Assembly (NCBI RefSeq): GCF_002215035.1
Contig: NZ_NKFP01000006.1
Coordinates: forward strand, 1,252,530-1,316,529
DNA from: Leptolyngbya ohadii IS1
GTDB lineage: Bacteria; Cyanobacteriota; Cyanobacteriia; Elainellales; Elainellaceae
DNA: 64,000 bases
Reading direction: 5' to 3'
Part shown: positions 20,044 through 60,989 of the stretch, one piece after another
Layout of the letters: each line of letters opens with the position of its first letter
How positions within the stretch are numbered: the first letter of the stretch is position 1
The notes under the pieces: model-generated
What the model saw: only the letters and a program-made list of their open reading frames with translations
What the model was told of the DNA's origin: nothing
Database searches by the model: none
Position numbers and translations under genes: made by a program

Positions 20044-20098
20044 AGGGGGAGTGGGTGAGGAAGCGGGGGAGCAGGGAGCAGGGAGCAGGGGAGCGTAG
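20044..20098. repeat. G-rich heptamer-type repeat
   Basis: Repeats of GGGAGCA, GGGGAGC and GGGAGTG in a gap of about 340 bp between the convergent-side ends of the protease and TPR genes. Same type as the repeat at cobA. Nothing else can be supported in 19829-20171. Confidence 0.8.
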
Positions 20099-53549: not shown

Positions 53550-55316
53550 TCATTGAACCTGCCAGAGGGAAAGACTCATCTCCGTGGGAACAAGCTGCTG
53601 GGGTTGGTAGCGATTCTGAATGGAAACGCCTTGCTTTTGTAAGTTCTCCTGAAGTTCGATCGACGGATTAAACACAAACGCACCAGGGAAATCATCCGCC
53701 CAGGTTGGGAGAGCATCGATCGCCCCTATTCTGATTCGCACATCTGGATTTAGGAGATGACTGAGGGATAACAAATCCATTGTTTGAGAAGCTTCCGCCA
53801 AAACGAGTGGGGATTTGGTCTGGTTAACGATAGCGGCGATCGGCGGGTTACTGAGACTGCGGCTTTTGTGATAGCGGGAAGGCTGCTGAAGCTGAAACAG
53901 GCAGGAACATAGGCTGATAAAAATCAATCCAGCAAACACACCTGACCAGAAACGCCGATGCTGTTTAGGTTCTTCCCAGAATTGGGGGGCTAGGGGGGCG
54001 GATTGAGACGAGTGTGTTATCTTTTCAAACGGATTCTTGAACAAATCAGTGAACAAATCAGGAATTCGCTCGAATAACAGAAAGGCGATCGTCAGCAGAA
54101 TCCCTAGATGAACGGGCATTAAATAACGGGGTGCAGTGGAAAGCCGTCCGTTTGCGAATAGATCGAATACGATCAGCGGAATCGGTAGAGCAACGCAGAA
54201 AGTGATGAGAAATAACCAGATTTTTCGCGGCGTTTTGCGGATTAATTCCCGCAGCGCAAACCCCATCAGTCCCACTAAAGCCGTTGCTGTTGCAATTTGA
54301 GCCAGTCCCACGATCGCTGGATTCGTCACGACAGGCACGTCAAAAAACAGAACTGCCAGCGTGTACAGCCAAATCGCCACCATCGGCAGGAAACCCAGCG
54401 GCAGTCTCGTCCAGGTAGTATTGTCCTGCACAGTGTCCAGTTGAGACACAATCACCCAGATCCAGGGAGAGAACAGCAGCAGGGAAGCGATCGCCGCAAA
54501 TCCCCAATGAAATAGCTTTTGCCGCCCCCAGCAGATTGCCACATAAACCCCTTGCCCCAAGAACACAGGTAAGCTGAGCAGCGAAGTATAGAGTCCGATC
54601 GCCGCAGAAAAGGCGTAGAGTATCCAATTTCCTAACTTTTCCGTCCGAATTGCCCGCAGCAGGGAAGCTCCCATCAGCAGCAGGGACAAACTCCAAAGAC
54701 TATAGGGACGGGCTTCCTGGGCGTACGCCACAAAAAACGGCGAAACGGACAGCAGCGAAACGGCAATCAGACTGACCTGACGCGACCGCTCCACGTAGCC
54801 GCCTTCAGCGGATCGCCATAACTCTCCCCGGAATAGCTCTGAACTGAGCCAGAACATTGCAGGTAGAGACAGGAGGCTGAATAGCACGGAAAGCGATCGA
54901 ATCTGAGCAATGCTATTTCCAGTCTCATGTCCAATCTCATGTCCAAGAAACTGCATCCAGAGCCGCGCCAGCAGGAAATAAAGGGGAGCGTGTTCGGGAC
55001 TCTGCCGCAGTGCGTTGAACGTTGCAGACCAGGGAAGCGCAGGGTCAAGCGTTTGCACATCCAGCAGCTGCTGAACAGTGAGAATCTGACCTGTGGCAAA
55101 TTGCTCAGTCACTTGCGCTCTGGTGGTTCCTGCAATCCGGATCGAAGTTGCCACCTCATCGACCCAATACACCTTGTCTGCCAGATGGGTGAACCGAAGG
55201 AAGATTCCCAGCAGCAGAGGAATTACTATGAACCAGATCTGCGATCGCTTCGTGCAACCGCTATAGGCAGATCGCTTCCAAATTCCATTTCCTTTTCCAT
55301 TTCCTTTTCCATTCAT
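53550..55316 (-). CDS. Multi-pass membrane glycosyltransferase (GT39-like), paralogue B
   Basis: A 588-residue protein with about a dozen hydrophobic segments. The DE motif YWVDEVATSIRIAG after the first helix is typical of PMT/ArnT-like transferases that use polyprenyl-phosphate sugars. The start ATG 55316 overlaps the upstream TGA (ATGA), with AGGAAG upstream, so it is translated together with its neighbour. A 12-bp repeat encodes NGKGNGKGN at the start. A dispersed G-rich repeat lies inside the gene (53970-54008). It encodes residues near 440 in a loop. The acceptor is unknown. Confidence 0.85.
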   Translation of the reverse strand: MNGKGNGKGNGIWKRSAYSGCTKRSQIWFIVIPLLLGIFLRFTHLADKVYWVDEVATSIRIAGTTRAQVTEQFATGQILTVQQLLDVQTLDPALPWSATFNALRQSPEHAPLYFLLARLWMQFLGHEIGHETGNSIAQIRSLSVLFSLLSLPAMFWLSSELFRGELWRSAEGGYVERSRQVSLIAVSLLSVSPFFVAYAQEARPYSLWSLSLLLMGASLLRAIRTEKLGNWILYAFSAAIGLYTSLLSLPVFLGQGVYVAICWGRQKLFHWGFAAIASLLLFSPWIWVIVSQLDTVQDNTTWTRLPLGFLPMVAIWLYTLAVLFFDVPVVTNPAIVGLAQIATATALVGLMGFALRELIRKTPRKIWLFLITFCVALPIPLIVFDLFANGRLSTAPRYLMPVHLGILLTIAFLLFERIPDLFTDLFKNPFEKITHSSQSAPLAPQFWEEPKQHRRFWSGVFAGLIFISLCSCLFQLQQPSRYHKSRSLSNPPIAAIVNQTKSPLVLAEASQTMDLLSLSHLLNPDVRIRIGAIDALPTWADDFPGAFVFNPSIELQENLQKQGVSIQNRYQPQQLVPTEMSLSLWQVQ

Positions 55317-57037
55317 CGTGCCGCTTCCTGTTGACATAAATTCCCGTTGTGCTGCTGTTTGGCGCGATCCATGCTCCACAGCGATAAATGAATGTCCTCC
55401 GAGGTCAGGAGATCTGGCTGATAAACTTCTTGCAGCGTCAGGAGATCACTTTGTCTAAGGCGATCGATCAGTTCCAAAGGGGGATTAAACAAAAAGTTCG
55501 TATTGCAGTCATCTAACGCAATTTCTGGCTCGATCGTGGGCAGAATTTGCAGCGAAATCGTGGGGGTCAAACTGTGGCTGAGGGACAGCAGATTCATCGT
55601 ATTTGCCGCTTCACTTACAATAAACGGACGACTTGCCTGATTGATGATAGAAGCGATCGGCGGATTAAACCGATTATGTGCCTTGAGATAGTCCGGCGTT
55701 CGGTTTAGATTTCCAATACAGGACAGCAAACTCAATCCCACCAGGAATACAAGAATTCCTGCCCTGAAGAATCTGCCGAACAGAAATCTCTCTGCCCCGA
55801 ACCGCCCCTCTAACCCCCCAATTCTGGGAGGAACTGAGCCTTGACTCACTGCCAGCAAAACCACGAGCTGAAGCGGCAAAAGATATCGTGGCGTAGCGGA
55901 AGCCTGTCCCTGCGAAAGGAGATCAATTAAAAAAAGAACGATCGGAATAGGCAGTGCAAAGGTCATTAAAAATAATGGGATTGATTTGGAAGAACGGCAG
56001 ATTGAAGCAAAAGATACGCCAATCATCGCCAAAATTAACAGTGCTGTGGATGCTTTGACGATCGTTTCCAAACTCAAGGACACCGTAACCGGAAAATCAA
56101 AAAAGAGAACGACAATACTGTATAGCCAGATTGCCACCATTGCGATCGGAGATAGCGGCATCCTTGCCCAGGTCGTATTATCCTGGAGCGTTCCCCACTG
56201 CTGCACCATCACAAAAATCCACGGAAAAAACAGTAGAATTACCCCACCTGCTGCTATAAACCACTGCTGTAAAAGTTTCCGCTCCCCCTTCGCAATCAGT
56301 CCCACGTAAATACCTTGTCCAATCAGCACCAGCAAAGTCAGCACCGACGTATAAAGCCCGACCGCCGCGCAGAAAACATACAGTAGCCAATCCCTGAAAT
56401 CTTTTGTCCGAGTCGCCCGCAGCAGCGACGCACCCATGAGCAGCAGTGCTAACACCCACAGGCTATAGGGACGGGCTTCCTGAGCATATGCGACAAAATA
56501 CGGTGAAATCGACAGCAGTGAAACGGCAATCAGGCTAGCTCGACGCGATCGAACCAGTTTTCCTTTGAATAGCTTCCGATATAGCTCTGAACTGAGCCAG
56601 AACATCGCAGGCAGAGACAGAAGGCTGAACAGGACGGAAAGCGATCGAATCTGAGCAATGCCATTTCCAGTCTCATGCCCAATCTCATGTCCAAGAAACT
56701 GCACCCAGAGCCGCGCCAGCAGGAAATAAAGGGGAGCGTGTTCGGGACTCTGCCGCAGTGCGTTGAACGTTGCAGACCAGGGAAGCGCAGAGTCAAGCGT
56801 TTGGACATCCAGAAGCTGCTGAACGGAGAGAATCTGACCTGTGGCAAATTGCTCAGTCACTTGCGCTCTGGTGGTTCCGGCAATCCGGATCGAAGTTGCC
56901 ACCTCATCGACCCAGTAAACACGACCGCTCAAGTTCGCCCAGCGAAAACAAATTCCCAGCAGGATGACCAGGAACAGCCCCAGTACCCATCCGCGAGGCT
57001 TGCCCGTCTTTATGATTCCTCGCACCGGATGATCCAT
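55316..57037 (-). CDS. Multi-pass membrane glycosyltransferase (GT39-like), paralogue A
   Basis: About 574 residues, a tandem paralogue of the gene at 53550. YWVDEVATSIRIAGTTRAQV near residue 35 and SLSVLFSLLSLPAMFWLSSE are shared almost identically. The C-terminal third has diverged but keeps NPPIASIINQA and NTMNLLSLSHSL. The stop overlaps the next gene's start (ATGA). An in-frame dispersed repeat encodes PPRIGGLEGRFGAE (55796-55840). The ATG at 57037 is used; a TTG at 57055 is also in frame. Confidence 0.85.
55796..55840. repeat. Dispersed C-rich repeat inside a coding region
   Basis: GAACCGCCCCTCTAACCCCC and CAATTCTGGGAGGAACTGAGCC match the intergenic repeat at 21532-21567. It keeps the reading frame of paralogue A. 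The matching element in paralogue B lies at 53970-54008, at a different place, which implies separate insertions. Confidence 0.75.
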
Positions 57038-57987: not shown

Positions 57988-58392
57988 TCAAGGCGATAGC
58001 GGCGGCGGAAACACAATCGATCGCGTGATTTCATTCTCCTGGGCAGAACGATCGACCTGCACCTCAAACCGATCGACTTCATCACTGCGTCCAATTCTCA
58101 GCACCGCTTCCAGATTGTCATGCGGACGGGCAATCAGATGATGGGAAAGCAGTTGACCCCCATTTACCCGACCGCTTCGCGCAGCCGCCCCAGGCGGATC
58201 GATTGCTTCCAGTCCGGCGGCGACTGCCTGCTGCACTTCAGAAACGCCTCCCCGCACAATCACCGTAATCCGCCCCACGTCCGTATTCTCGAAGCTCATC
58301 AGCGTGACCCGCGCCCCTTTACACATGGCGTCCGCGACTTCCATCGCCGTCGGAATCCCCAAAATTTCAATCATGCCGATTGCCAGTGCCAC
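57988..58392 (-). CDS. Carboxysome-type shell protein (BMC domain), divergent CcmK-like
   Basis: A 134-residue hexamer-forming shell protein. The BMC fold starts AIGMIEILGIPTAMEVADAM, then RVTLMSFENTDVGRITVIVRGGVSEVQQAVAAGLEAI and LLSHHLIARPHDNLEAVL. The pore region reads ENTDVGR where CcmK1/2 have EKIGSGR. There is an insertion DPPGAAARSGR before NGGQLLSHH, and a longer C-terminus than the usual 103 residues. Its pore chemistry is probably different. The start is GTG at 58392. It stands away from any other carboxysome gene. Confidence 0.85.
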   Translation of the reverse strand: MALAIGMIEILGIPTAMEVADAMCKGARVTLMSFENTDVGRITVIVRGGVSEVQQAVAAGLEAIDPPGAAARSGRVNGGQLLSHHLIARPHDNLEAVLRIGRSDEVDRFEVQVDRSAQENEITRSIVFPPPLSP

Positions 58393-58592: not shown

Positions 58593-59552
58593 ATGAGGCG
58601 ACGCTGGATCGGAATAACATTATTTCTGGTGACGATCGCGGCTATTGTCCTGGGCTGGCAACTGCATCAGCGGCGGTTAATTCCCTTTGCCAGCGAAGTG
58701 GGCTATTTGCAGCCCCAGCGGGTCTTCAGCGATGTGCCGATCGTCTTTCCCAAATCGAATCCCGATCGCTTAATTGCCGACCTGGATGCCCTGAGCTATG
58801 TTCGGCATGAGGTAGACGATCGCGCCCGTGCCCGCAGCTACATCATGCAGGAATTGCAGGCGGCAGGCTGGCAGGTGCAGGAACAGCCCTTTGGTGAAGG
58901 TGGGATCAATCTTTATGCCGAGCGTCTTGGAACCGATCCCAGTGCAGGCGTAATCTTGCTGGGCGGACACTACGACACGGTCGAAGAATCCCCCGGAGCC
59001 GATGACAACGCTACAGCCGTCGCAACCCTCCTGGAAGCGGCAAGACTCTTTCAGAAAGAACAAACCCCCCGCACCCTGCGGCTCGTCTTTTTTGACCTGG
59101 AGGAAGCGGGACTGCTGGGCAGCGAGTATTATGTGCAGCATCATCAGTCGGACACAGATTTTCACGGTGCCGTCATCCTCGATATGCTGGGCTACTCCTG
59201 CAATACCCCCGGCTGTCAAACCTATCCCAGCGTTCTACCGATCGCCCCACCCACCGATCGCGGCACTTTCCTGGGCGTCATCGGCAATCAGGGACATCCT
59301 TCCCTCACCGAAAGCTTTACCGATGCCAATCAGCCCGACCTTCCCCAGGTCATCACCCTCTCTGTCCCCACAATGGGACGCTTCACCCCCGATCTGGTTC
59401 GCAGCGATCATGCGCCTTTCTGGCGATCGGGCTTAGGCGCAGTCCTGGTGACGGATACCGCTAACTTCCGCAATCCCCACTATCATCAGCCCACGGATAC
59501 CCTGGAAGAAGTTTCGATCGATCGAAACTTCTCCAGGGTATCCGTGGGCTGA
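58593..59552 (+). CDS. M28-type zinc aminopeptidase, truncated at C-terminus
   Basis: A membrane-anchored peptidase (one hydrophobic helix at residues 6-22) with all metal ligands: His in GGHYDTVEES, Asp in GADDNATA, Glu pair in DLEEAGLLGSE, Asp in AVILDMLGY and His in HYHQPTDTL. The protein ends soon after the last ligand, with SRVSVG read from the second arm of a large inverted repeat. Family members normally have a further helical stretch after this point. The gene is therefore probably 3'-truncated, and activity is uncertain. Confidence 0.8.
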   Translation: MRRRWIGITLFLVTIAAIVLGWQLHQRRLIPFASEVGYLQPQRVFSDVPIVFPKSNPDRLIADLDALSYVRHEVDDRARARSYIMQELQAAGWQVQEQPFGEGGINLYAERLGTDPSAGVILLGGHYDTVEESPGADDNATAVATLLEAARLFQKEQTPRTLRLVFFDLEEAGLLGSEYYVQHHQSDTDFHGAVILDMLGYSCNTPGCQTYPSVLPIAPPTDRGTFLGVIGNQGHPSLTESFTDANQPDLPQVITLSVPTMGRFTPDLVRSDHAPFWRSGLGAVLVTDTANFRNPHYHQPTDTLEEVSIDRNFSRVSVG

Positions 59553-59967
59553 TGATAGTGGGGATTGCGGAAGTTAGCGGTATCCGTCACCAGGACTGCG
59601 CCTAAGCCCGATCGCCAGAAAGGCGCATGATCGCTGCGAACCAGATCGGGGGTGAAGCGTCCCATTGTGGGGACAGAGAGGGTGATGACCTGGGGAAGGT
59701 CGGGCTGATTGGCATCGGTAAAGCTTTCGGTGAGGGAAGGATGTCCCTGATTGCCGATGACGCCCAGGAAAGTGCCGCGATCGGTGGGTGGGGCGATCGG
59801 TAGAACGCTGGGATAGGTTTGACAGCCGGGGGTATTGCAGGAGTAGCCCAGCATATCGAGGATGACGGCACCGTGAAAATCTGTGTCCGACTGATGATGC
59901 TGCACATAATACTCGCTGCCCAGCAGTCCCGCTTCCTCCAGGTCAAAAAAGACGAGCCGCAGGGTGC
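59071..59967. repeat. Near-perfect inverted repeat, about 448 bp per arm, no spacer
   Basis: Left arm 59071-59519 and right arm 59520-59967 are reverse complements, with one extra A in the left arm near 59506. The centre is a 24-bp perfect palindrome at 59508-59531. The right arm ends where a G-rich repeat begins (59968). The left arm lies within the M28 gene. It is either a genuine inverted duplication or a fold-back artefact. Confidence 0.92.
59520..59967 (-). pseudogene. Inverted partial copy of the M28 peptidase gene
   Basis: The right arm, read on the minus strand, repeats the C-terminal half of the peptidase almost exactly (HHQSDTDFHGAVILDMLGY and so on). It has no own start region and, because of the one-base difference, ends KFRSIETSSRVSVG. 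It is a fragment, not a gene. Confidence 0.88.
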
Positions 59968-59991
59968 AGGGGAGCAGGGAGCAGGGGGGAG
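59968..59991. repeat. G-rich repeat at the palindrome end
   Basis: AGGGGAGCAGGGAGCAGGGG of the same type as at 8681 and 20044. It marks the outer border of the inverted duplication. Confidence 0.8.
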
Positions 59992-60050
59992 CTGAATCCC
60001 GTATGCTAGGGGAGGTGTTATCTCCCGATCTTTGATATTCAGGTTACGCT

Positions 60051-60989
60051 ATGCTGCCGCAGGAAATTCTTGCCCTCGCACAACAGGGTCATCCGATCGC
60101 CATTGGCACGCTGCTCAACTACTCGCTCCGATCACAGGGCATCAAAGCCAGGGTTCAGCGGCAGGATCAGAGGCTGCACGTTTTGCTGGAGTCGCAGCAG
60201 GCAATCGATCCGGAGAAGGCGATCACGTTTGTGAAGGGTAGCGTAAGCGTCTTGAATGTTGATTCAATTCAGACCATCATGGTCTATAGTCGGCGGCAGG
60301 GAAAGATACACCTCGACTGGTGGCAAACAATCGAGCTTCATTCTTCCTCGGAACCATCGTCCGCCAGTCTGCCGCTATTCAATCGGGTGAATTTGCCTCT
60401 ATCCCCTGCATCCCTGCCCGATCTATCGCTCTCGAATCCCCCCGAACTGCCCCTGTCCCGGAGAGATGCTGTGACTCAAGATAACGTTTTCTCGGAATCC
60501 CTGGAGCCTGCCCACGCTGCCGCGATCGAATCTTCGACCCGCTCCTTAATCGACAAGCAAGTTGAGAAACAAGTCGAGAAACAAGTTGAGGAGCAAGCCG
60601 TGCCCTCGGTGCAGCAGGCGGTTTCACTGGGGCGATCGTCGGAAGAACTGCCCGTAGAATTTAATGCGGCATCGGTGGAGTCTCCTTTCCCCAGTCCTGA
60701 CGTTCCTTCACAGACCCCTGAGGTCTTAAAGCGTCCAGAGTCGGTGATCTTTTTGCTGTTTATCAGTCTGTTTATCTTCTGGGATGCCTACGTTGAGTTT
60801 TTAGATGATGGCTTCTCTCCAGAAACGACGGCAATTTCCGCCAGCCAGCTCGCCCGTCGCCTCAAGATCAGCCGCAAGGTCATTCGCCGCAGAAAACGCG
60901 ATCGCGACTTTCCCGCCTGGACGAGGAGCCTTGACCCAGACGGCACTGCCTGGACTTATCGCAAAGGTTATTATCTGTCGCAGCCGTAA
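60051..60989 (+). CDS. Conserved cyanobacterial protein with C-terminal HTH-like end
   Basis: A 312-residue protein. The N-terminal 95 residues (LPQEILALAQQGHPIAIGTLL, then IKARVQRQ, LHVLLESQQAID) form a domain seen in many cyanobacterial proteins of unknown role. A disordered Ser/Pro/Gln region follows, including KQVEKQVEKQVEEQ made by 12-bp repeats. A hydrophobic helix (VIFLLFISLFIFWDAY) lies near 230. The last 55 residues (ISASQLARRLKISRKVIRRRKRDRD) look like a helix-turn-helix. It may be membrane-bound with a DNA- or protein-binding end. Function unknown. Confidence 0.72.
   Translation: MLPQEILALAQQGHPIAIGTLLNYSLRSQGIKARVQRQDQRLHVLLESQQAIDPEKAITFVKGSVSVLNVDSIQTIMVYSRRQGKIHLDWWQTIELHSSSEPSSASLPLFNRVNLPLSPASLPDLSLSNPPELPLSRRDAVTQDNVFSESLEPAHAAAIESSTRSLIDKQVEKQVEKQVEEQAVPSVQQAVSLGRSSEELPVEFNAASVESPFPSPDVPSQTPEVLKRPESVIFLLFISLFIFWDAYVEFLDDGFSPETTAISASQLARRLKISRKVIRRRKRDRDFPAWTRSLDPDGTAWTYRKGYYLSQP

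What the first reader, a model, noticed from the sequence alone, without database searches (positions are those of the whole stretch)
59071..59967. Spacerless ~0.9-kb palindrome cuts an M28 peptidase gene
Two arms of about 448 bp are reverse complements with a single one-base difference and no spacer. The centre is a natural-looking 24-bp palindrome in the gene (59508-59531) around CGATCGATCG, a HIP1-like word. This invites a fold-back template switch as the origin. Long perfect palindromes are usually unstable, so either the event is very recent, or the host tolerates it, or it is an assembly or amplification chimera. The right arm ends exactly at a G-rich repeat.
Basis: partly seen in the sequence, partly recalled or inferred. 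Interest (0 to 1): 0.8.

Follow-up and report, generated by a model that had tools for sequence, protein, structure and literature searches.

The report
Assembly-made palindrome in peptidase gene
The 0.9-kb mirror-image sequence really is in this cyanobacterial genome record, but many similar scrambled patches elsewhere in the same draft genome show that it is most likely a wrongly closed sequencing gap next to a G-rich repeat, not something the organism carries.

Summary
The palindrome is in the record as described: two 448-bp arms at 59071-59967, no spacer, one 1-nt indel. It replaces the last 24 codons of an M28 peptidase gene and the start of the intergenic region; the nearest relative has a normal gene end there. 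It is not unique: 2.0 Mb of the same genome hold 18 similar clusters of local inverted and direct copies, ten with spacerless palindromes, while 1.4 Mb from relatives hold nothing comparable. Blocks are joined through shared words with a sharp mode at 10 nt. The clusters truncate conserved genes, including the only purH, and are enriched at a G-rich GGGAGCA repeat. The assembly is a gapped draft. An unfilled 451-N gap lies at this repeat in a histidine-kinase gene, and a similar gene carries a patch at the matching place. The window's right arm ends at the same repeat. Best reading: a mis-closed assembly gap. A chimeric DNA molecule and in vivo template switching are less likely rivals. Reads across 58900-60100 would decide.

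The parts
58593..59552 (+). M28 peptidase ORF as it stands in the record (319 aa), its C-terminal end replaced by inverted sequence
   Evidence: PF04389, 114 bits; orthologue in L004 runs 24 codons further
59071..59519 (+). left arm, 3' part of the M28 gene
   Evidence: alignment of arms
59519..59967 (-). right arm: inverted copy of the left arm, 1 nt shorter; most likely not genomic
59507..59532 (.). central 26-bp palindrome (24 bp = 59508-59531) with the 10-mer CGATCGATCG in its middle; 6 nt of its left half are absent from all relatives
59968..59990 (+). G-rich GGGAGCA-type repeat where the right arm ends; family with 105 matches in the genome, 0 for the reversed control
59992..60989 (+). 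flank collinear with the same-genus relative again: intergenic remainder and the next gene (312-aa ORF at 60051)

Best explanation
The right arm is not genomic sequence but a wrongly closed gap in a gapped draft assembly. The contig carrying the M28 gene ended in or near the 3' part of the gene, and the next contig began in the G-rich GGGAGCA repeat downstream. The missing piece (last codons, stop and the first part of the intergenic region) was bridged by turning back at the 10-nt self-complementary word CGATCGATCG, running back over 448 nt of sequence already in hand, and turning forward again where GCAGGGTGC resembles GCAGGGAGC of the repeat. Shown: the structure, the missing gene end, the gapped nature of the assembly, many sister patches with joins of about 10 nt, their enrichment at the same repeat, and truncated conserved genes. 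Inferred: that gap-filling software did it, and the exact order of steps.
For: 18 clusters of the same kind in 2.0 Mb of this genome and none comparable in 1.03 Mb of relatives' loci plus 0.4 Mb of two single-contig relatives. Joins through shared words with a sharp mode at 10 nt (12 of 34 exactly 10; only 4 below 8), in both orientations. Copies essentially identical, differences mainly at the distal ends. Gapped draft: N gaps of 361, 451 and 261 and scattered short N. Single purH lacks its first ~39 profile positions at a spacerless palindrome, six relatives have 1-511. GGGAGCA heptad at 6 of 18 clusters against 1.08 expected, P 0.0014. A 451-N gap at the heptad in one histidine-kinase gene, a patch at the matching place of a similar gene. 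The window's arm ends at the same repeat.
Against: No reads, coverage or assembler record could be inspected. Some patches leave neighbouring genes whole (eno, trmB). Most clusters (12 of 18) are not near the heptad. That the assembly is from short reads is inferred from the N pattern only. The 10-nt limit is inferred from 34 joins.
Confidence: 0.72

Rival explanations
1. The palindrome is an in vitro chimera: during amplification or library preparation a polymerase stalled at the G-rich repeat, its 3' end reannealed to nearby complementary DNA, and the chimeric molecule was assembled because true coverage was missing there.
For: MDA chimeras join nearby segments, 85% inverted, through 2-21 complementary nt (PMC1855051), mostly 0-5000 nt apart (PMC4595205). 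WGA makes palindromic long reads (PMC6218980). The local scale and the identity of the copies here are similar.
Against: MDA overlaps peak at 6 nt, mostly 5-8; here the mode is 10 and few are below 8. Within 10 kb, MDA joins were 337 inverted to 11 direct; here near copies are 35 direct to 37 inverted, and the L145 patch needs only direct jumps. Each patch returns to the collinear strand, which needs two or more joins per molecule. Whether the DNA was amplified is unknown.
Confidence: 0.18
2. Real in vivo event: replication stalled at the G-rich repeat, the nascent strand switched to the opposite strand, copied 448 nt, and switched back at CGATCGATCG, leaving an inverted duplication that deleted the 3' end of the gene; the same process acted at many sites of this genome.
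For: Both switch points have short complementarity. The 6-nt change beside the centre looks like a templated quasi-palindrome correction. Polymerase template switching between short inverted repeats is established (e.g. PMC7202029, PMC8604942, listed).
Against: Dozens of perfect long palindromes would have to persist in a genome that encodes SbcC and SbcD homologues, although long spacerless palindromes are a known risk to genome stability (PMC7999016). Copies show no range of ages. The only purH would be broken. Open gap and patch occupy matching places in similar genes. Samples of relatives lack such structures.
Confidence: 0.08

Closest known systems
Misassembly by faulty gap closing in scaffolded draft assemblies (general knowledge; no specific paper found)
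   Same: Short fixed overlap at joins, locally recruited sequence in both orientations, loss of the true piece, clustering at hard-to-sequence repeats, neighbouring gaps left as N
   Different: The tool used is unknown, so its rule could not be matched
Multiple displacement amplification chimeras (Lasken and Stockwell 2007, PMC1855051; Tu et al. 2015, PMC4595205)
   Same: Nearby segments, often inverted, short complementary words at joins, identical copies
   Different: Overlap mode 10 rather than 6, as many direct as inverted copies, multi-join patches that return to the collinear strand
Replication template-switch / quasi-palindrome mutation and fold-back inverted duplication
   Same: Spacerless palindrome centred on a short natural palindrome; a templated-looking change next to the centre
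   Different: Number, perfection and genome-wide spread of the structures, and truncation of a single-copy conserved gene, do not fit a tolerated in vivo process

Membership tests
Gap-closing misassembly | assembly is a gapped draft | tested here: met
   N gaps of 361, 451 and 261 and many short N in 2.0 Mb
Gap-closing misassembly | joins obey a minimum overlap | tested here: met
   34 joins, mode and median 10 nt, four below 8
Gap-closing misassembly | true sequence missing at the patch, conserved genes truncated | tested here: met
   M28 end, purH, histidine kinase
Gap-closing misassembly | no raw read supports the joins | not testable with these tools
   no reads available
MDA chimera | mostly inverted joins with overlaps peaking near 6 nt | tested here: not met
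   35 direct and 37 inverted near copies; overlap mode 10; reference values
MDA chimera | DNA was amplified before sequencing | not testable with these tools
   strain and protocol unknown
In vivo template-switch inverted duplication | short complementarity at both switch points | tested here: met
   CGATCGATCG in the relative; GCAGGGTGC against GCAGGGAGC
In vivo template-switch inverted duplication | structures diverge with age and essential genes stay whole | tested here: not met
   copies identical but for the distal ends; only purH truncated
In vivo template-switch inverted duplication | both arms present in the living genome | not testable with these tools
   needs long reads or PCR

The most novel reading that the evidence does not exclude
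In this cyanobacterium, replication stalling at a dispersed G-rich repeat really triggers repeated local template switching, leaving dozens of fresh perfect palindromes and shuffled copies that the cell tolerates although it encodes SbcCD.
Probability: 0.06. Interest if true: 0.85.

Novelty: not a real feature. Interest (0 to 1): 0.12.

Why it matters
It prevents a false claim of a stable 0.9-kb perfect palindrome in a bacterium and flags this assembly: extrapolating from the 2.0 Mb sampled, some 70 patches may truncate or invent genes in it, so gene losses, pseudogenes and inverted repeats read from it need checking. It also gives a simple test for such artefacts: scan a draft for local inverted and direct copies that share a fixed join length.

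Tried and rejected
Idea that the arms of the sister palindromes show a series of ages (90-100% identity) and are therefore biological: withdrawn, because mismatches sit mainly at the distal ends and the rest is identical. HIP1 as a specific switch word: some joins contain GATCG words, many do not. Loss of SbcCD as the reason for tolerance: both genes score over the cut-off. General G-quadruplex enrichment at patches: 5 against 2.6, not significant; only the GGGAGCA heptad is enriched. Search for the lost M28 end elsewhere in the genome: nothing, but the query was short and without a positive control. Literature on palindromes made by gap closing: no hit. Attempts to learn the strain and its sequencing method from papers led nowhere. 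One search counted runs of N as palindromes, a script error that revealed the N runs; its palindrome count is not used.

Full report
Observation. The record holds two arms, 59071-59519 and 59519-59967, that are reverse complements without spacer and differ by a single 1-nt indel 16 nt from the centre. No third copy of the arm was found in the genome. The central 59 nt fold as a very stable hairpin.

What it replaced. The left arm belongs to an M28 peptidase gene (PF04389). In the closest relative found (L004, Cyanobacteria bacterium FACHB-502) the gene runs on for about 24 codons past the equivalent of the centre (...IDRDFFLGSAQTVINAIAILLQGAIGN, stop), followed by the intergenic stretch and the next gene. 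The window becomes collinear with it again at about 59992, just after a G-rich repeat. So about 75 nt of gene and a short piece of intergenic DNA are missing, and 448 nt of inverted copy stand in their place.

The centre. In about 95 relatives, from cyanobacteria to Nitrospirota, the spacing D-T-x-x-T-x-x-x-x-F is fixed. The window's left arm has two extra codons (DTL-EEVS-IDRNF). The right half of the central palindrome (ATCGATCGAAACTTC, IDRNF) is gene-like, while the left part reads as the reverse complement of that stretch. The central palindrome is therefore partly a product of the joining (inference), not simply a natural feature that invited it. The natural part is probably the 10-mer CGATCGATCG, which the relative has.

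The rest of the genome. The genome is 7.90 Mb in 8 pieces. Scanning 2.0 Mb of it gave 18 clusters of local inverted and direct copies, the window's own included, ten of them with spacerless palindromes, with arms of up to 848 exact bp. In 1.03 Mb of relatives' loci no inverted arm exceeded 38 bp. In 0.4 Mb of two single-contig relatives there was no spacerless palindrome; the matches were six direct repeats and two spaced inverted ones of 61 and 171 bp.

Signature. Neighbouring blocks share words at their joins: 34 joins, median 10 nt, 12 of exactly 10, four below 8. Five of the joins are self-complementary words of 8-12 nt at which a palindrome turns. The copies are essentially identical, with differences mainly at the distal ends. 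A sharp lower limit near 10 nt in both orientations looks like an overlap rule. Published MDA chimeras peak at 6 nt and are mostly inverted (PMC4595205; PMC1855051).

Gaps and the G-rich repeat. The sampled part has N gaps of 361, 451 and 261 and many short N runs concentrated in a few loci, so it is a gapped draft; that it comes from short reads is my inference. The GGGAGCA heptad has 105 matches genome-wide and none for the reversed control. It lies in or near 6 of 18 clusters against 1.08 expected (P 0.0014). Most tellingly, the 451-N gap at L170:15212-15662 lies in a histidine-kinase-like gene at ...GGGAAGCAGG|N|GAGCAGGGGAGC. In a similar gene the matching place (L145, about 12289), again at the heptad, carries a patch: a copy from 0.7 kb downstream and one from 0.85 kb upstream, joined by 14 nt, with part of the kinase's ATPase domain lost (domain reading by eye). 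One gap was left open, the other closed wrongly. The palindrome in the window ends at this same repeat.

The outer join. Every other near-copy of AGGGTGCAGGGGAGC in the genome differs from it; most read AGGGAGCAGGGGAGC. The T in the window therefore comes from the inverted arm (GCAGGGTGC), and the sequence changes from arm to repeat at an imperfect 9-nt match.

Broken genes. The only purH begins at about profile position 40, next to a spacerless palindrome centred at L159:4945. Six relatives have the full 1-511. By established knowledge PurH is needed for purine synthesis in a prototroph, so this is unlikely to be the true sequence. By eye, YgjP-like, Hsp33-like, NUDIX and AcrB-like genes are also truncated or scrambled at patches. 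Eno and trmB are whole beside their partial copies, so not every patch breaks a gene.

Verdict. A mis-closed assembly gap is the best explanation (0.72); a chimeric DNA molecule is next (0.18), making an artefact of either kind about 0.9. In vivo template switching is not excluded without reads (about 0.08). SbcC and SbcD homologues are encoded, so no special tolerance is indicated.

Noticed in passing
L145, L159, L167, L174, L180, L181, L188, L189, L203, L213, L214, L219, L222 (window's own genome): Clusters of local inverted and direct copies of 50-850 bp joined through words of about 10 nt, the same kind of structure as the window's palindrome.
   Followed up: yes
L171, L172, L204, L238 (window's own genome): Many single or short N runs inside genes, apparently ambiguous positions of collapsed repeat copies; a sign of draft assembly.
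   Followed up: partly
window 8701, 20065-20091, 59969; 105 matches genome-wide: Dispersed G-rich GGGAGCA heptad repeat family, absent in reversed control; apparently a frequent gap site.
   Followed up: partly
window 57988-58392: Gene with a BMC domain (PF00936, carboxysome-shell type) on the minus strand, upstream of the M28 gene and divergent from it.
   Followed up: no
window 54340-55172 and 56097-56920: Two adjacent genes of a membrane-protein family share about 78% nucleotide identity over 0.84 kb, an ordinary-looking tandem gene duplication.
   Followed up: no
L159:9582-9677: The distal 95 bp of a palindrome arm over pdxJ match the other arm at only about 72%, while the remaining 510 bp are identical; not explained.
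   Followed up: no
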